Positions 45,419 through 51,435 of a stretch of 64,000 bases of DNA are shown here, piece by piece. The notes below the pieces were generated by a model. It was not told the DNA's origin. It saw only the letters and a program-made list of their open reading frames with translations, and did not search any database. Origin of the DNA: Pyrococcus sp. ST04 (GTDB lineage: Archaea > Methanobacteriota_B > Thermococci > Thermococcales > Thermococcaceae); assembly GCF_000263735.1 (NCBI RefSeq), contig NC_017946.1, positions 1,157,348-1,221,347 of the forward strand. Direction: 5' to 3'. The translations under genes were made by a program, and so were the position numbers. How positions within the stretch are numbered: position 1 is the first letter of the stretch; each line of letters opens with the position of its first letter.

Positions 45419-45432
45419 TTAGGTCACCCTAA
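45419..45432. promoter_or_regulatory. TTAGG-N4-CCTAA box, MBL promoter
   Basis: TTAGGTCACCCTAA overlaps the end of the TATA-like TTTAAATATT and lies just before the ATG at 45442. Both half-sites are perfect. The same box occurs upstream of the NifX genes at 46493, 46604 and 50216. The sequence resembles DtxR/IdeR-type metal-regulator sites. Confidence 0.7.
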
Positions 45433-45441
45433 TCCCTTTTC

Positions 45442-46095
45442 ATGAGGTTGGTAGTTCTAAATGATAATGTCCCCGCTAGAGGATTAATTAATGAGTGGGG
45501 ATGGAGCATTCTAGTGGATCGCGTGATATTCGATGCCGACACGAATCCCCTTGTTCTAGCCCACAATGCAAGGATCCTTGGGGTGAGTCTAAAAAATATA
45601 AAGTTCGCTTTCCTAAGCCACTGGCACTATGATCACTATGGGGGAATGCCATATATAGCTGAGCTTAATCCTGGAATAAAGTTGTATGCTCCAATAGAAG
45701 GAATGGCCATGGCTATGAGATGGGGATTTGAACCGGTTCCAGTAAGGGACGGAGGAAAGATTGAAGATAAGTTCTATACCTCAGGTGTTTTAGAAGGTAT
45801 TGAGCATGCAATGGGCGTTGAAACTAGTTCTGGTCTTGTGATAATCGTTGGCTGTAGCCACCCTGGAGTTGACAGGCTTGTGGAAGAAGTTTTGAAAGTT
45901 TCTGGCAATGAAAAGGCATATTTGGTAATTGGAGGATTTCACTCTCCTCCCATATGGAGATTGAACAGACTTGCAGAACTATCTGAATTAATAGCACCTG
46001 CCCACTGTTCCGGAGATGTAGCAAAAGACTACATAAAGAAAAAATTTCCAGATAAGTTCGTAGAGGTCAGGACTGGAACAATAATTGATGTTTAG
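45442..46095 (+). CDS. metallo-beta-lactamase-fold protein (dihydropterin-synthase-like group)
   Basis: A 217-residue MBL-fold hydrolase. The metal motif SHWHYDHYGGM (HxHxDH) and later VGCSHPG and GGFHSP are those of the COG1237 group that includes archaeal 7,8-dihydropterin-6-methyl-4-(ribofuranosyl)-aminobenzene phosphate synthase. The true substrate is unknown. It is smaller than its paralog at 50.6 kb. Its last four bases overlap the end of the opposite NifX gene. The promoter carries a TTAGG-N4-CCTAA box and the mRNA is probably leaderless. Confidence 0.85.
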   Translation: MRLVVLNDNVPARGLINEWGWSILVDRVIFDADTNPLVLAHNARILGVSLKNIKFAFLSHWHYDHYGGMPYIAELNPGIKLYAPIEGMAMAMRWGFEPVPVRDGGKIEDKFYTSGVLEGIEHAMGVETSSGLVIIVGCSHPGVDRLVEEVLKVSGNEKAYLVIGGFHSPPIWRLNRLAELSELIAPAHCSGDVAKDYIKKKFPDKFVEVRTGTIIDV

Positions 46096-46493
46096 TAGGA
46101 CATATTAGCTTTTTTCTTTTCTTGAACTTGTCTCCACAGCTCATCAAAGTTTTCTAAAACCCTTTGAAGGGCCACATTTAGATCTCTAGTTCTCGTAAAA
46201 AATGCAACTTTATCGCTCTGATCTCTTATTCTAAGAAAGTTGGGCCCCATTCTAAACGCTGCAAGAACATCAACGTCTTTTAAGAGTTCGATTATTGCCC
46301 TGAACTTCCTTGGATCGCCATGACCCTCATCTTCTTCCTCCATATCTCTTGCTTTATTGTGCCTTTTCTCTAATAATCTGACCTCTCCATTTTCACAAAC
46401 TTCATATATTGCAAAGAAATTTGAATCACCGTAGTGAGCGTCTATTAGCTTATCATCACTTTCCATGCCGAAAGCAACTTTCAAACACCTCAT
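46092..46493 (-). CDS. NifX/NafY-type FeMo-cofactor-binding domain protein, acidic insert
   Basis: A 133-residue protein with the dinitrogenase iron-molybdenum cofactor fold: KVAFGMESDDKLIDAHYGDSNFFAIYEV and VDVLAAFRMGPNFLRIRDQS. An acidic, His-containing insert (RDMEEEDEGHGDPR) in the middle may bind metal. The C-terminus is a helical tail. No nitrogenase genes are present; such proteins in archaea are thought to carry Fe-S or metal clusters. GGAGGTGGGG precedes the ATG, and box TTAGGCTACCCTAA lies between the TATA box and the start. Confidence 0.85.
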   Translation of the reverse strand: MRCLKVAFGMESDDKLIDAHYGDSNFFAIYEVCENGEVRLLEKRHNKARDMEEEDEGHGDPRKFRAIIELLKDVDVLAAFRMGPNFLRIRDQSDKVAFFTRTRDLNVALQRVLENFDELWRQVQEKKKANMSY

Positions 46494-46510
46494 TTTTCCC
46501 CACCTCCAAG

Positions 46511-46524
46511 TTAGGCTACCCTAA
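46511..46524. promoter_or_regulatory. TTAGG-N4-CCTAA box, promoter of the minus-strand NifX gene
   Basis: TTAGGCTACCCTAA lies between the minus-strand TATA box (TTTATAAATA, about 46526-46537) and the start at 46493, where a bound protein would block transcription. Confidence 0.7.
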
Positions 46525-46544
46525 AATATTTATAAAGATTGGCG

Positions 46545-46558
46545 TTAGGCTAACCGAA
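46545..46558. promoter_or_regulatory. near-match TTAGG-N4-CCGAA box, promoter of the plus-strand NifX gene
   Basis: TTAGGCTAACCGAA differs from the box consensus at one base. It contains TTAGGCTAACC, the core of the DtxR/IdeR consensus. It lies just upstream of the plus-strand TATA box (GTTTATATTTA) and about 45 bases before the ATG at 46604. Confidence 0.6.
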
Positions 46559-46603
46559 AAGTTTATATTTATGAGCATATGCACAAAATATTGGTGAGGG
46601 AGT

Positions 46604-47188
46604 ATGGTGAGGGTTGCTGTTCCGACAAATGGTGGAGGATTAGAAGACACCGTTGCCCCCGTATTTGCAAGAGCTCCGGCATTTTTAATTGCTGACATAG
46701 ATGAAAACGGGAACATAACGAGCACAAAAATCATTCAGAACCCAGCTGCAACAGCTGCTGGCGGAGCAGGCCCACTTGCTGTGCAAACGCTCATAAATGA
46801 AGGTGTTGAGGCAATAGTTGCTCCTCAGGTTGGACCGAACGCGTTGGGTGCAATACAGGCCGCAGGAATAAGACTATACACAGTTGCACCCGGGACTAAA
46901 GTTGAAGATGCAGTTAAAGTTGTCACCCAAGAAACTCCAACACCATCACAAGTTCCAAGAGTATTTGGTCCAGCGGTAACTGCCCCAGTTGCCCCGCAAA
47001 CTCCAGTTGTACCTGCCTACTATTGGGGGCCAGGATGGGGATGGGGAAGAGGAAGAGGCTGGGGCAGAGGTTGGGGACGTGGTTGGGGAAGAGGTGGAAG
47101 AGGCTGGGGAGCAAGACTCGGCTACTGCCCATGGACTGGAATGCCAAGTAGAAGAACCTTAAGATGGCTTTATGGCTGGTGGTGGTGA
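46604..47188 (+). CDS. NifX-type protein with Gly/Arg/Trp-rich tail
   Basis: A 194-residue protein. Residues 1-105 form the NifX/NafY fold (VRVAVPTNGGGLEDTVAPVF, EGVEAIVAPQVGPNALGAIQAAGI). A proline-rich linker follows, then a tail of repeated GRGWGRGW units from about residue 145. The end, LGYCPWTGMPSRRTLRWLYGWWW by its parts LGYCPWTGMP and WLYGWWW, resembles DUF5320-like tails. The tail could bind metal clusters, RNA or membrane surfaces; this is not known. The next gene begins five bases after the stop. Confidence 0.85.
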   Translation: MVRVAVPTNGGGLEDTVAPVFARAPAFLIADIDENGNITSTKIIQNPAATAAGGAGPLAVQTLINEGVEAIVAPQVGPNALGAIQAAGIRLYTVAPGTKVEDAVKVVTQETPTPSQVPRVFGPAVTAPVAPQTPVVPAYYWGPGWGWGRGRGWGRGWGRGWGRGGRGWGARLGYCPWTGMPSRRTLRWLYGWWW

Positions 47189-47193
47189 AGTAA

Positions 47194-47424
47194 TTGCCCA
47201 GAGGTATGGGAAGAGGGTACGGCAGAAGATTTTCTCCCTTTTATCCCTTTGGAGGAAGCCTCTTCTGGCTACTTGACATACTCCTATTGCTAGCAATGCT
47301 TTACATACTCCTCAAGCTGTTTCTTGTTGCCGCACCCTATGTGATTGCTCTTATCGTAATAATGATTATTAGAGCCCTAATAAGGCCTAGAGGGCCAAGA
47401 ATGTGGTTTCCTCCCTATTATTAA
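47194..47424 (+). CDS. small membrane protein with Gly/Arg-rich N-terminus
   Basis: A 76-residue protein. The start MPRGMGRGYGRRF is like the tail of the gene before it. Residues 24-67 contain two hydrophobic helices, and the end is RPRGPRMWFPPYY. The TTG start is chosen because GGTGGTGAAG, formed by the end of the previous gene, lies five bases before it; an ATG at 47206 is possible. It likely acts with the NifX protein. The 3' end overlaps the opposite methyltransferase gene by 48 bases. Confidence 0.7.
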   Translation: MPRGMGRGYGRRFSPFYPFGGSLFWLLDILLLLAMLYILLKLFLVAAPYVIALIVIMIIRALIRPRGPRMWFPPYY

Positions 47425-48006
47425 CCTCACAACTCCCTTGTAATGTTTTTCTTCTTTTTCAACTTCAAAGAATTTTCTCACAAGCTCATGGGTCTTTCGC
47501 GTTGTCTCATCATCAAGAAGAGGCTTTAATAGGAACTCTAAGGGCCTTAAGAGTAAGTTATTTATAGCTTTACTGTCGCTTAAAGTGTGCTCTAGGAATA
47601 TAGCCCTTCCACCAGGTTTAAGAACCCGTTTAATCTCAAGCATACCTCTTTCCGGATTTGGAACAGTACAAAAGACGAAAGAAGAAACGACATAATCAAA
47701 AACATTGTCGGGAAAAGGAAGGTTCTCAACATCTGCATGGAAAAAGTTCACATTAATTCCCAAGCTTTCTGCCTTTTTCTTAGCTATTTCAAGCATTTTA
47801 ATACTTCCATCTACTGCGTAAAGTTCTATGTTTTTTGGATAATACTTCAGAGTCTTTCCAGTTCCTATTCCAACCTCAAGAACTCTGCTTCCAGGTTGAA
47901 TATACCTTATGGCTTTTTCTCTAAGCTTTTCAAAAAATTTGTCAAGGGGAATTTCGAGTAAGTCGTACTTTTCTCCTATTCTATCATATTTTTCCCTGTA
48001 CGTAAC
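47377..48006 (-). CDS. class I SAM-dependent methyltransferase; start codon unclear
   Basis: A UbiE/COQ5-like methyltransferase. Motif I VLEVGIGTGKTLKYYP and the following acidic LYAVDGS, then FPDNVFDYVVSSFVFCTV and LKPGGRAIFLEHTL, form an intact fold of about 209 residues. The first ATG in frame (47796) would cut off motif I. Upstream of it the frame is open back into the end of sufB but has no ATG, GTG or TTG. Translation may start at a rare codon near 48006, or by slippage at the GGGGGG run that overlaps the sufB stop. A sequencing error in that run is the simplest alternative. The substrate is unknown. Confidence 0.75.
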   Translation of the reverse strand, partial: VTYREKYDRIGEKYDLLEIPLDKFFEKLREKAIRYIQPGSRVLEVGIGTGKTLKYYPKNIELYAVDGSIKMLEIAKKKAESLGINVNFFHADVENLPFPDNVFDYVVSSFVFCTVPNPERGMLEIKRVLKPGGRAIFLEHTLSDSKAINNLLLRPLEFLLKPLLDDETTRKTHELVRKFFEVEKEEKHYKGVVRLIIGRKPHSWPSRPY

Positions 48007-49346
48007 TACATCCCCCCACTCACTGCGAGCTCTATTATCTTTCTTATCTCTACAAGGAACTCAACAGGAATGTCCTTTAGCATGGGCTCAAGGAAGCCCT
48101 TCACTATAAGTTGAGTTGCCTTTTCCTCGCTTAAACCCCTTGACATTAAATAGAACAGTTCTTCTTCCCTGATTTTTCCTATAGCAGCCTCATGACTAAG
48201 TTCTGCATCATCAACGAGGCTTACTAATCCCGGATATGTTTCCATCCTGGCTTTATCACTCATTAATAAAGCATCACAGCTTATATGACCTTTTGTTTTC
48301 GGAGCAATGGCCACTATCTTTCCCCTAGTGATGACAGTGGACTCATCCATTATGACGGATTTACTTGCATTTATGCCTTTAGACCCTTCCCCCTCAAGGT
48401 ACATCTCACCGCCCAGGTCTATGTACCAGTCCTTTTGACCCAGGATTATTCCATTTAACTCCACGTAACCACCTTCCCTTACCCAATACTTTGGATTGGC
48501 AATATTGCTTTTTCCGGCTCCAAGACTTACTGTCGTGTTCAAGAATTGGGCATTTTTTCCGACCTTGGCCCTTGTCATGGGTCTCGTATGAACGTATTCA
48601 GGCCAATTCTGAAGAACCGTGAGCCTGACCTTTGATCCCTCATGGAGATAGGCTTCAGTCATGTCAAGATGAAGCGAGTGTCTAACCAGTATTGGAGCAG
48701 TACATCCTTCAATTAGGTGAACTTCACTATTCTTTTCGGCAATTATAACGATATGAGGAGCTTGAGCCAGAGAGCTCTCCTGAATTAAGAAGAATAAATG
48801 AAGTGGGAAAGGAACCTTTAAGTTCTCCTTTAGATAAAGGAAAATTCCACCATTCCACACTGCTGTATGATATGCAGTTAACTTATTCTCACCAGCCTTG
48901 AAAAGTTTTAGGAAGTGCTCTTTCATGACCTCAGGGTATTTCCTTACGGCTTCTTCAGTTGGCATTACAATGAGACCCTTCTTAGCCCACTCCTGAAGAA
49001 ACTGGTTATATATAACTCCTGTATCAGTTTGAACGGCTAAACCTGCTATATACTTTTGCTCAACTTCTGAGATCCCAAGCCTGTCAAGTAAAGCCTTCAT
49101 CTCAGGTGGCAAGTCATCTAAACTTTCAATTTTCTCAGGAAGACCTTCAACCTCAGGCTTTGCTATGAACTTCAGAAGAGACTCTTCATCAATTATTGGA
49201 TCAACATGAGGAGCCTTCATAAATTCATCGAGAGCTTTGTATCTTAGTCTCGTCATCCATTCAGGCTCTCTATTTCTTTTTGCTAGCTCCTCTATTTGAT
49301 TCTCAATTATTGATCTTGCATCCATCAAAGTTAGGGTTTCACTCAT
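48006..49346 (-). CDS. sufB: Fe-S cluster assembly scaffold SufB
   Basis: A 446-residue SufB/SufD-family protein: a long N-terminal helical part, then the right-handed beta-helix core with DGGVDVxG-like repeats (for example HISCDALLMSDKARMETYP and DDAELSHEAAIGKI, the conserved Cys/His region). With SufC it forms the archaeal minimal Suf system for Fe-S cluster building. ATG 49346 is chosen, after GGAGGTGATTCTA. The gene overlaps sufC by eight bases. Confidence 0.95.
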   Translation of the reverse strand: MSETLTLMDARSIIENQIEELAKRNREPEWMTRLRYKALDEFMKAPHVDPIIDEESLLKFIAKPEVEGLPEKIESLDDLPPEMKALLDRLGISEVEQKYIAGLAVQTDTGVIYNQFLQEWAKKGLIVMPTEEAVRKYPEVMKEHFLKLFKAGENKLTAYHTAVWNGGIFLYLKENLKVPFPLHLFFLIQESSLAQAPHIVIIAEKNSEVHLIEGCTAPILVRHSLHLDMTEAYLHEGSKVRLTVLQNWPEYVHTRPMTRAKVGKNAQFLNTTVSLGAGKSNIANPKYWVREGGYVELNGIILGQKDWYIDLGGEMYLEGEGSKGINASKSVIMDESTVITRGKIVAIAPKTKGHISCDALLMSDKARMETYPGLVSLVDDAELSHEAAIGKIREEELFYLMSRGLSEEKATQLIVKGFLEPMLKDIPVEFLVEIRKIIELAVSGGM

Positions 49347-50082
49347 TAGAATCACCTCCAAGAACAGCCTTAAATCCCTCGGCTTCAATTATATCCACAA
49401 GCTCGGCTCCACCACTTTTTATTATCCTTCCACTCTCCATTACATGAACAATGATGTTCTCTCTGTCTATATGCTTCAGTATTCTGCCGTAGTGAGTTAT
49501 CAGGACTATTGATATCCCCTTCTTATGAAGTTCTTCAATTTTTCTGCTTATTACGCTTAGAGAGTCCACATCCACTCCACTATCCGGTTCATCAAGTATC
49601 AGAACCTTTGGTTCGATCAAGAGAGCCTGAAGAAGTTCTAGTCTCTTTCTCTCACCGCCCGAAAAACCTACATTTATGCATCTCCTTAGATCTTCTTCTT
49701 TGAACCATAGTTCCTGGGCCTTCTCTTTGATAATATCGTACGCCTTCATTACATCTATTCCTTTAAGTTCGCTGAGAACTTGGGTGAGGAAGTCTATTAT
49801 TCTAACCCCTTCAACTTCAGGAGGAACTTGAAATGCTAGGAATATTCCTCTTTTAGCCCTCTCATCCGGGGGTAAATCTGTTATGTCTTCACCATTTAGC
49901 TTTATCTTTCCTCGAGTGATCTTATACTTTGGATGACCTGCTATTGTAAGTGCAAGAGTTGATTTTCCTGAGCCGTTAGGGCCCATAATTATATGGAACT
50001 CGCCAGGGTTTACGGTTAGATTTACTCCCTTAAGTATCTCCTTCCCACCAGCACTCACATGGAGATTCTCAACTTTGAGCAT
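49339..50082 (-). CDS. sufC: Fe-S assembly ATPase SufC
   Basis: A 247-residue ABC-type ATPase. Walker A is GPNGSGKSTLA, the signature FSGGERKRLELLQ, Walker B VLILDEPDSGVD, and the switch His lies in VLITHYGRIL. It powers SufBC complex formation. ATG 50082 is chosen because GGAGGTGG lies four bases before it. The TTAGG-N4-CCTAA box at 50181 lies about 100 bases upstream, between this gene and the divergent NifX gene. Confidence 0.95.
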   Translation of the reverse strand: MLKVENLHVSAGGKEILKGVNLTVNPGEFHIIMGPNGSGKSTLALTIAGHPKYKITRGKIKLNGEDITDLPPDERAKRGIFLAFQVPPEVEGVRIIDFLTQVLSELKGIDVMKAYDIIKEKAQELWFKEEDLRRCINVGFSGGERKRLELLQALLIEPKVLILDEPDSGVDVDSLSVISRKIEELHKKGISIVLITHYGRILKHIDRENIIVHVMESGRIIKSGGAELVDIIEAEGFKAVLGGDSNE

Positions 50083-50180
50083 TAGACCACCTCCGTGTGT
50101 ATCTGAAAGGTTCATTTTTTAAGCATTTTGGGACATTTATGTGGAATGCAATATTCTTTATAGGTTACTTAAGGTTTAAA

Positions 50181-50194
50181 TTAGGTTCGCCTAA
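50181..50194. promoter_or_regulatory. TTAGG-N4-CCTAA box between sufC and the NifX gene
   Basis: TTAGGTTCGCCTAA is the best copy of the box; the arms extend to AATTAGG and CCTAATT (50179-50196). It lies between the TATA-like GTTTAAATT and the ATG of the NifX gene at 50216. On the other side it is upstream of the sufC TATA-like sequence, so it could control both. Confidence 0.75.
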
Positions 50195-50215
50195 TTGTTA
50201 CTGGAGGTGAGGTAA

Positions 50216-50635
50216 ATGAGATTCATAGTGGCAACTGTTAGAGGGGGACTTGACGATAGGGTAAATCAAGCCTTTGGAAGAACCCCAACGTTCACCATAG
50301 TTGATGTAGACGAAAATGGAAACATACTCAACGTGCAAGTTGTTGAGAATCCTGGCTACTCACAGCCAAGAGGAGCAGGAGTAACTGCGGCCCAGTTCTG
50401 CATTGACCAAGGAGCTGACGTGGTGATAGCTGGTCAGTATGGTCCAAACTCCTACGGAGTTCTCCAGGCGGCAGGAATGAGGTTCGTCTCAGCTCCGCCA
50501 ACGATGACCGTTAGAGAGGCCATAGAGGCCTACCTAAGAGGAGAGCTAACACAGGCCATCATGGGCCAGGGTGGAGGAGAAAGAGGTATGGGCAGAGGAA
50601 TGGGTAGGGGAAGAGGGTGGGGGAGAGGATGGTGA
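50216..50635 (+). CDS. NifX-type protein with Gly/Arg/Met-rich tail
   Basis: A 139-residue protein. Residues 1-108 are the NifX/NafY fold (MRFIVATVRGGLDDRVNQAFG, DQGADVVIAGQYGPNSYGVLQAAGM). The tail GQGGGERGMGRGMGRGRGWG is similar to, but shorter than, that of the paralog at 46.6 kb. GGAGGTGAGG precedes the ATG. It overlaps the next gene by seven bases. Confidence 0.88.
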   Translation: MRFIVATVRGGLDDRVNQAFGRTPTFTIVDVDENGNILNVQVVENPGYSQPRGAGVTAAQFCIDQGADVVIAGQYGPNSYGVLQAAGMRFVSAPPTMTVREAIEAYLRGELTQAIMGQGGGERGMGRGMGRGRGWGRGW

Positions 50636-51435
50636 GGGTTGTTATAGTATTTGAAAATCATGCTGGGTACAGAAAGGGGCTTATAGGATATCATGGCTTT
50701 TCAGCATTAGTTGAGAACAATGGATATAGAGTCCTTGTCGATACAGGAACAGATGGAAATATTTTACTGAACAACATGAGAGAGCTCGGAATAAATCCAG
50801 ATTCCATAGATGCCCTATTCATAACACATGGTCACTATGATCACACGGGAGGATTAAAAGCTCTCTTAGAAGCCAGAGAAAAGCCCTTAGATATCTATGC
50901 CCATCCCCAGATTTTTGAAAAGAGGATAGCCTTGAAGCCAAGGAGAAGGGACATTGGAATACCCTTCGAGAGAGAGGAGCTTGAGGAGCTAGGCGCTGTC
51001 TTTCACTTAAGTGAAAAGCCAAAAGAGTTCTTACCAGGATTCTTAAGTTCCGGAGAAATTGAAAGAACAACATGGGACAGAGCCGTTGGATACTTCCCTG
51101 ATGGAAGAAGGGATCCCGTTAAAGATGACATGGCTTTAATAGTCGATGCAGGAGATGGATTGGTTGTTATAAGTGGATGCGGACATAGCGGGATAATAAA
51201 CATTGCTAGACACGCAATTAGGATTGCTAACAAAAGGATTGCGGCTTTAATCGGGGGATTCCATCTAAAAGGCGCGAGTAGGGAAATATTGGAAGATGTA
51301 GTTGATGAAATGAAGAAGCTTGAAGTTGAAAGGCTATACCCTGGGCATTGCACTGGAATAAGAGAATTTGCATACCTCTACAGCAAACTCGGAAACGTGG
51401 AAGAAATATATGTAGGAAAGGAGATAAAGATTTAG
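50629..51435 (+). CDS. metallo-beta-lactamase-fold protein (dihydropterin-synthase-like group)
   Basis: A 268-residue MBL-fold protein of the COG1237 group. The metal motif THGHYDHTGGL (HxHxDH) is in place, and VVISGCGHSGIINI and IGGFHLKGAS follow. It is the longer paralog of the protein at 45.4 kb and, like it, sits next to a NifX gene. It is likely cotranscribed with the NifX gene whose tail codons overlap its ATG. The stop abuts the IF5A stop on the other strand. Confidence 0.88.
   Translation: MVRVVIVFENHAGYRKGLIGYHGFSALVENNGYRVLVDTGTDGNILLNNMRELGINPDSIDALFITHGHYDHTGGLKALLEAREKPLDIYAHPQIFEKRIALKPRRRDIGIPFEREELEELGAVFHLSEKPKEFLPGFLSSGEIERTTWDRAVGYFPDGRRDPVKDDMALIVDAGDGLVVISGCGHSGIINIARHAIRIANKRIAALIGGFHLKGASREILEDVVDEMKKLEVERLYPGHCTGIREFAYLYSKLGNVEEIYVGKEIKI

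What the first reader, a model, noticed from the sequence alone, without database searches (positions are those of the whole stretch)
45442..51435. Two NifX-MBL modules with Gly/Arg/Trp tails surround SufBC in a genome without nitrogenase
Three NifX-fold proteins, two COG1237-type MBL proteins and a small Gly/Arg membrane protein flank sufBC. The GRGW repeat tails and the GRG start of the membrane protein look like matching parts. This could be an unstudied system for storing, carrying or delivering an iron or Fe-S (or tungsten/molybdenum) cluster.
Basis: partly seen in the sequence, partly recalled or inferred. Interest (0 to 1): 0.7.

Follow-up and report, generated by a model that had tools for sequence, protein, structure and literature searches.

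The report
IssA iron-sulfur storage locus with partners
This is the archaeal IssA locus, which makes a protein already known to store iron and sulfur together as nanoparticles, accompanied by conserved partner genes and two shared DNA control sites that could explain why the store is built only when both iron and sulfide are plentiful.

Summary
The genes are real and at the stated coordinates: three NifX-domain proteins, two COG1237-like MBL proteins, a 76-aa Gly/Arg membrane protein (SMP) and SmsB/SufC, in a Pyrococcus-type genome with no nitrogenase hit. The "unstudied" reading is wrong at its core. ORF 46604-47188 matches the published description of P. furiosus IssA (SipA/PF2025), which stores Fe and S as thioferrate nanoparticles (PMC5524996). 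What I did not find described is the kit around it. In 64 Thermococcaceae issA loci, SMP follows issA in 58 and a short-tailed paralogue (IssA2) lies downstream in 58. SmsBC lies between in only 16, so SufBC is an optional neighbour. The gene family shares two palindromic operators flanking the TATA box: A, TTAGGN4CCTAA, the IdeR/DtxR consensus, also at feoA and dtxR; and B, TGTGCATATGCACA, 1-3 per genome in 36 of 37 genomes, 0 control hits. issA is ordered A-TATA-B; issA2 usually B-TATA-A. Promoters with A+B belong to genes published as strongly sulfur-induced; sufC promoters without boxes to genes that are not. I propose an iron-and-sulfide AND gate. Regulator B, SMP's role and the MBL substrates are unproven.

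The parts
45419..45432 (.). Operator A (TTAGGTCACCCTAA) before MBL1
   Evidence: Exact TTAGGN4CCTAA; one of only three exact matches in 64 kb, all in this locus. Not conserved at MBL1 in relatives (1 of 22).
45442..46095 (+). MBL1, COG1237-like metallo-beta-lactamase-fold protein, 217 aa
   Evidence: PF00753 E 4e-9; nearest solved structures 7dck and TM1679/3h3e; found in 48 of 94 family genomes.
46092..46493 (-). NifX1: tail-less NifX-domain protein with conserved C3, C33, H20, H58; possibly SipB
   Evidence: PF02579 E 9e-13; own clade 98/93; conserved residues; within 6 kb upstream of issA in 43 of 64 loci.
46511..46524 (.). Operator A of nifX1
   Evidence: Exact match; an A site (<=1 mismatch) precedes 48 of 49 nifX1 genes.
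46545..46558 (.). Operator A of issA, variant TTAGGCTAACCGAA, just upstream of the TATA box
   Evidence: CCGAA variant conserved before issA; 55 of 66 with <=1 mismatch.
46562..46569 (+). Putative TATA box of issA (TTTATATT), between operators A and B
   Evidence: Sequence; conserved AT-rich block in the gap.
46572..46585 (.). Operator B (TGAGCATATGCACA) of issA
   Evidence: One of two exact sites in the genome; B with <=3 mismatches before 65 of 66 issA genes, 0.2 expected in shuffles.
46604..47188 (+). issA: NifX domain + Pro-rich linker + G/R/W cationic tail with a single Cys, 194 aa
   Evidence: PF02579; tail composition matches the published IssA; IssA clade.
47194..47424 (+). SMP: small membrane protein with a GRG-rich N-terminus, long hydrophobic stretch and Arg-rich C-terminus; TTG start
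   Evidence: Homologues in 74 of 94 family genomes, one each; downstream of issA in 58 of 64 loci; alignment.
48006..49355 (-). SmsB (minimal SUF scaffold); neighbour, not a constant part
   Evidence: NF052511 962.6 bits; between issA and issA2 in 16 of 64 loci.
49339..50082 (-). SufC ATPase; neighbour, divergent from issA2
   Evidence: TIGR01978 280.5 bits, cut-off 212.8.
50181..50194 (.). Operator A of issA2, in the sufC-issA2 intergenic region
   Evidence: Exact match; A with <=1 mismatch before 63 of 66 issA2 genes, mostly near -35.
50216..50635 (+). issA2: NifX domain + short M/G/R tail, 139 aa
   Evidence: PF02579 E 1e-21; separate from IssA in the tree; tail statistics.
50629..51435 (+). 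MBL2, COG1237-like MBL-fold protein; start overlaps the issA2 stop
   Evidence: PF00753 E 1e-19; PDB 2p4z E 7e-39; conserved HxHxDH; downstream of issA2 in 23 of 64 loci.

Best explanation
This is an IssA-type iron-sulfur storage locus. Shown elsewhere for the P. furiosus protein: IssA binds Fe and S as anionic thioferrate through its NifX domain, and the cationic G/R/W tail is proposed to wrap it. Inferred here: IssA2, with the same domain and a short M/G/R tail, is a second thioferrate-binding subunit that modulates particle size or release. SMP brings the same cationic G/R surface to the membrane and may dock or nucleate thioferrate near sites of Fe uptake and sulfide production. MBL2, translationally coupled to issA2, is an accessory hydrolase in some lineages. 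SmsBC is a frequent but optional neighbour that could use released Fe and S. Regulation, inferred: operator A is a DtxR site and operator B a site for a second, unidentified regulator that reports iron or FeS excess. With A and B on either side of the TATA box, issA fires only when sulfide has drawn down free Fe2+ (A released) while iron is plentiful (B released). A-only promoters (feoA) then serve iron hunger, and B-only promoters (a CDF cation exporter, NifX3) serve iron excess.
For: Domain and tail match the published IssA: 109-aa NifX domain, Pro-rich then G/R/aromatic tail, one Cys. IssA and IssA2 are separate groups across the family. The neighbourhood is conserved: SMP 58, IssA2 58, NifX1 43 of 64 loci. 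A equals the IdeR 14-bp consensus TTAGGNNNNCCTAA. It has 15 exact sites in the genome against about 2 expected, including feoA, and a 1-mismatch site sits before dtxR in five genomes. Internal control genes in the same loci have none (0 of 88). B is exact 1-3 times per genome in 36 of 37 genomes, reversed-pattern control 0; sites examined lie at issA, NifX3, the MinD-ferredoxin ATPase and CDF genes. Published expression fits: sipA is induced by sulfide only with enough iron (PMC5524996). In Palaeococcus, SipA +6.23, its NifX neighbour +4.29 and the CobQ-type ATPases +3.74/+3.41 (log2) are sulfur-induced, feoAB is up and suf is not (PMC6981617); the genome of matching length has A+B at issA and the ATPase, A at feoA and none at sufC.
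Against: No binding or expression data exist for this strain. The P. furiosus IssA sequence was not held, so orthology rests on the published description. IssA immunoprecipitates reportedly contained no other protein (PMC5524996), against a stable IssA-SMP or IssA-IssA2 complex. DtxR is usually a repressor, and in issA the A site touches the TFB recognition region, so activation versus derepression at issA is undecided. The window's issA2, nifX1 and MBL1 lack a clear B of their own. The regulator of B is unknown. Genome names are inferred from lengths.
Confidence: 0.72

Rival explanations
1. The locus is an accessory of SmsBC: the NifX proteins are carriers that hand Fe-S units to SufB, and the MBLs and membrane protein help delivery.
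For: SmsBC sits inside the cluster in 16 of 64 loci and next to issA2-MBL2 in three more Pyrococcus genomes where issA lies apart. IssA rebuilds a [4Fe-4S] cluster in ferredoxin in vitro (PMC5524996). NifX3 lies beside a short SufBD protein in other genomes.
Against: Most genomes keep issA-SMP-issA2 together without SmsBC nearby. Unlinked sufC promoters have neither operator (0 of 12), and Suf is not clearly sulfur-induced in Palaeococcus or T. onnurineus (PMC6981617, PMC4463584).
Confidence: 0.15
2. A carrier for a Mo, W or other heterometal cluster, like NifX/NafY or the orange protein ORP.
For: Shared fold: PDB matches include ORP (2wfb) and a probable NifB protein (1o13); weak similarity to the MrpORP C-terminus. 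Thermococcales use tungsten (general knowledge).
Against: No nitrogenase. Scores far below the NifX and MrpORP cut-offs. The IssA particle contains Fe and S as thioferrate. The shared operator is an iron-type (IdeR/DtxR) site, not a molybdate or tungstate one.
Confidence: 0.05
3. The storage locus is as described, but operators A and B are both plain repressor sites acting independently, or B is a basal promoter element, so there is no AND logic.
For: Both sites closely flank the TATA box, where any bound protein would block transcription. The swapped order in issA2 could be neutral.
Against: B occurs only 1-3 times per genome, so it is not a general promoter element. In issA2 it lies upstream of the TATA box, so it is not a transcript hairpin. 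A-only, B-only and A+B gene sets differ in function in the expected way.
Confidence: 0.3

Closest known systems
IssA/SipA iron-sulfur storage protein of Pyrococcus furiosus (PF2025; PMC5524996)
   Same: N-terminal NifX domain, Pro-rich linker, cationic Gly/Arg/aromatic tail with the only Cys, same order of archaea.
   Different: Published work treats IssA alone. The neighbours IssA2, SMP and MBL2 and the two-operator promoters are not mentioned in the main text.
IdeR/DtxR iron-dependent regulon
   Same: Operator A is identical to the 14-bp consensus TTAGGNNNNCCTAA (PMC8464063) and lies at feoA and dtxR.
   Different: Mostly the 14-bp core rather than the 19-bp site. At issA it has a CCGAA half-site and is paired with operator B.
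NifX / NafY / NifB C-terminal domain, MrpORP/ORP
   Same: PF02579 fold that binds iron-sulfur or metal-sulfur units.
   Different: Far below the NifX and MrpORP family cut-offs; no nitrogenase genes; long G/R/W tail.
SUF-like minimal system SmsBC
   Same: The SufB-type neighbour passes the SmsB family cut-off.
   Different: It is a neighbour in a minority of lineages, not a constant component of the storage kit.
COG1237 metal-dependent hydrolases (2p4z, 7dck, TM1679)
   Same: MBL1 and MBL2 match these structures by sequence; MBL2 keeps the HxHxDH motif.
   Different: Substrate unknown; association with issA2 is found in only part of the family.

Membership tests
IssA iron-sulfur storage proteins | N-terminal NifX (IPR003731/PF02579) domain of about 109 residues | tested here: met
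   46604-47188: PF02579 E 1.4e-19, residues 14-107.
IssA iron-sulfur storage proteins | Pro-rich then Gly/Arg/aromatic cationic tail holding the single Cys | tested here: met
   85-residue tail with 19 G, 11 R, 12 W, 4 Y, 11 P, 1 C, against 70 residues with 15 G, 14 aromatic, 7 cationic, 11 P in P. furiosus.
IssA iron-sulfur storage proteins | Falls in the IssA clade with the P. furiosus protein | tested here: inconclusive
   One group with Thermococcaceae IssA homologues (91/92); the P. furiosus sequence itself was not held.
IssA iron-sulfur storage proteins | Binds thioferrate and forms nanoparticles | not testable with these tools
   Needs anaerobic purification and spectroscopy.
IssA iron-sulfur storage proteins | Induced by sulfide when iron is sufficient | not testable with these tools
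   No expression data for this strain; relatives show sulfur induction (PMC6981617, PMC4463584).
NifX (TIGR02663) | Score above the family cut-off of 112 bits | tested here: not met
   NifX1 scores 29.7 bits; the two tailed proteins do not hit it.
MrpORP carrier (NF041136) | Score above 450 bits, with ATPase domain plus C-terminal domain | tested here: not met
   27.2 and 39 bits, C-terminal part only.
IdeR/DtxR operator | Palindrome TTAGGNNNNCCTAA in front of iron genes | tested here: met
   Exact sites at feoA, nifX1, issA2; 1-mismatch at issA and dtxR.
IdeR/DtxR operator | DtxR binds the site in an iron-dependent way | not testable with these tools
   One DtxR gene in the genome; binding needs an experiment.
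SmsB (NF052511) | Score above 650 bits | tested here: met
   962.6 bits.
COG1237-like MBL fold | MBL domain with HxHxDH metal motif | tested here: met
   MBL2 H67, H69, D71, H72 conserved in at least 93% of 29 homologues; MBL1 shows HWHYDH in the window sequence.

The most novel reading that the evidence does not exclude
Thermococcaceae run a three-way iron switch built from two operators. A-only promoters respond to low free Fe2+ through DtxR. B-only promoters respond to iron or FeS excess through an undiscovered regulator. A+B promoters form an AND gate that builds a thioferrate store made of IssA, IssA2 and a membrane-bound G/R docking protein.
Probability: 0.35. Interest if true: 0.75.

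Novelty: new variant of a known kind. Interest (0 to 1): 0.55.

Why it matters
It has been published that issA responds to sulfide only when iron is sufficient (cited in PMC5524996), and I found no regulator named for this in the papers held. Two conserved operators, one matching the DtxR consensus and one for an unknown factor, make that question directly testable by promoter mutation and DNA pull-down. The conserved partners IssA2 and SMP give named genes to test for how thioferrate particles are nucleated, sized and released.

Tried and rejected
Mo/W carrier: no supporting evidence, family cut-offs not met. SufBC as the functional centre: rejected as general, because unlinked sufC promoters lack the operators (0 of 12). 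My first count of A sites at sufC (18 of 20) was not independent: it mostly re-counts the divergent issA2 site. The control ORFs (13% with a site) include spurious antisense frames over these promoters; the named neighbour genes (0 of 88) are the better control. B as a transcript hairpin: rejected, since it lies upstream of the TATA box in issA2. SipB = NifX1 or the MinD-ferredoxin ATPase: not settled. Literature searches for operator B strings found only unrelated papers. The papers on DtxR in P. furiosus (Zhu 2013) and on SipA regulation (Clarkson 2010) are not held.
Full report
Observation. The window lies at 1157348-1221347 of a 1,736,885-bp single-contig genome, and its three PF02579 genes are the only ones there. 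PF00148 (nitrogenase) gives no match in this genome or the eight others of its genus. Two of the three NifX proteins have G/R/W tails; NifX1 does not. MBL1 and NifX1 are convergent and overlap by four bases. MBL2 starts at ATG 50629, inside the last codons of 50216-50635, so that pair is probably translationally coupled.

Identity. The 194-aa protein 46604-47188 fits the published P. furiosus IssA (formerly SipA, PF2025): a NifX domain of about 109 residues, then a Pro-rich stretch and a Gly/Arg/aromatic tail holding the only cysteine (PMC5524996). That protein was purified as thioferrate nanoparticles and can rebuild a [4Fe-4S] cluster in ferredoxin. The storage guess is therefore right, and the word unstudied is wrong. 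The P. furiosus sequence itself was not held, so orthology is inferred from description and from grouping with Thermococcaceae homologues. Closest solved structures by sequence are MTH1175 (1eo1), 1rdu and ORP 2wfb.

Conservation. PF02579 genes occur in 90 of 94 family genomes. The small membrane protein is found in 74 of 94, one copy each. In 64 fetched issA loci it follows issA in 58. IssA2 is downstream on the same strand in 58 (42 within 1 kb), NifX1 upstream within 6 kb in 43, SmsB between in 16, and MBL2 downstream of IssA2 in 23. Common layouts: issA-SMP-issA2 alone; issA-SMP-(MTase)-smsB-sufC-issA2-MBL2, as in the window; and, in three Pyrococcus genomes, issA apart from sufC-issA2-MBL2. 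IssA, IssA2, NifX1 and NifX3 form separate groups spanning the family (one G093 row labelled IssA2 falls beside IssA), so the duplications look old. SMP aligns as a GRG-rich N-terminus, a long hydrophobic stretch and an Arg-rich C-terminus.

Operator A. The window has exactly three perfect TTAGGN4CCTAA sites, all in this locus, plus a one-mismatch site at issA. The 14-mer is the consensus proposed for IdeR/DtxR (PMC8464063). The genome has 15 exact sites against about 2 expected from composition. They include the starts of feoA, a radical SAM gene, a MinD-ferredoxin ATPase, a ZnuA-like gene and a TYW1-like gene. The genome has one DtxR-type gene with a one-mismatch site just before it, and four related genomes have the same. 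With starts corrected, A with at most one mismatch precedes 55 of 66 issA, 63 of 66 issA2 and 48 of 49 nifX1 genes, and none of 88 other named genes of the same loci.

Operator B. A second palindrome, TGTGCATATGCACA, appeared in the promoter alignments. With at most three mismatches it precedes 65 of 66 issA, 57 of 66 issA2 and 40 of 49 nifX1 genes, with 0.2 to 0.4 expected in shuffled sequence. Genome-wide, exact TGNGCATATGCNCA occurs 1-3 times in 36 of 37 genomes, and the reversed pattern never. Sites inspected lie at issA, at NifX3 beside a short SufBD protein, at the MinD-ferredoxin ATPase, and at a CDF-type cation exporter; 16 of the 52 inspected sites were not assigned by the automatic labels, several of them CDF starts. 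A and B are 26-29 bp apart with the TATA-like block between. The order is A-TATA-B at issA and B-TATA-A at issA2 and the ATPase. In the window itself only issA has a clear B.

Fit to published expression. sipA is induced by sulfide only when iron is sufficient (PMC5524996). In Palaeococcus pacificus, sulfur raises SipA (log2 6.23), its NifX neighbour (4.29) and two CobQ-type ATPases (3.74, 3.41), raises feoAB, and leaves suf slightly down (PMC6981617). The held genome of matching length (1,859,370 bp, identity inferred) has A+B at issA and at the ATPase pair, A at feoA, and neither at sufC. In T. onnurineus SipA and SipB appear only with sulfur, while SufC/SufB ratios are 0.74-0.92 where measurable; in the genome of matching length sufC lacks both boxes, as do ten other unlinked Thermococcus sufC promoters. 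These are correlations on few genes.

Mechanism. Most likely, IssA stores thioferrate. IssA2 and SMP are further G/R-bearing partners, by inference. Sulfide lowers free Fe2+ by forming FeS, which would release DtxR from A; a similar blindness of DtxR to FeS was proposed for Methanococcus voltae (PMC8516115). B would report iron or FeS excess through an unknown regulator, because it also marks a cation exporter. Together they would make issA an AND gate. Whether A represses or activates at issA is not decided by sequence: the A site there ends in CCGAA, next to the TATA box in the TFB recognition region.

Limits. No binding, expression or metal data were produced here. Species names of held genomes are inferred from length. 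IssA immunoprecipitates reportedly held no other protein (PMC5524996), which weighs against a stable IssA-SMP complex, although a 76-aa membrane protein could be missed.

Noticed in passing
G008, G007, G018: L160, L161, L162: A fourth NifX-type gene (NifX3) next to a short SufBD-like gene, often with operator B alone; absent from the window genome.
   Followed up: partly
L173 (genome 1377378), L187, L190, L209, L210, L212, L219: A CDF-type cation exporter gene starts at operator B (one mismatch in the window genome), suggesting B marks iron-excess genes.
   Followed up: partly
L042, L043, L169 (genome 977988-978998): A radical SAM protein and a MinD-type ATPase with ferredoxin motifs, each with operator A; the ATPase also has B and lies beside nifX1 in a T. 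onnurineus-sized genome (L129).
   Followed up: partly
window 47377-48005 (-): Methyltransferase frame appears to lack an ATG, GTG or TTG start before its first internal ATG at 47796; it may use another start or be damaged.
   Followed up: no
G028 and G080 MBL2 homologues: MBL2 split by in-frame stops in these genomes, so it may be dispensable.
   Followed up: no
L083, L084 (WOR-3 bacterial MAG contigs): Two tandem IssA2-like NifX genes in candidate-division bacteria.
   Followed up: no
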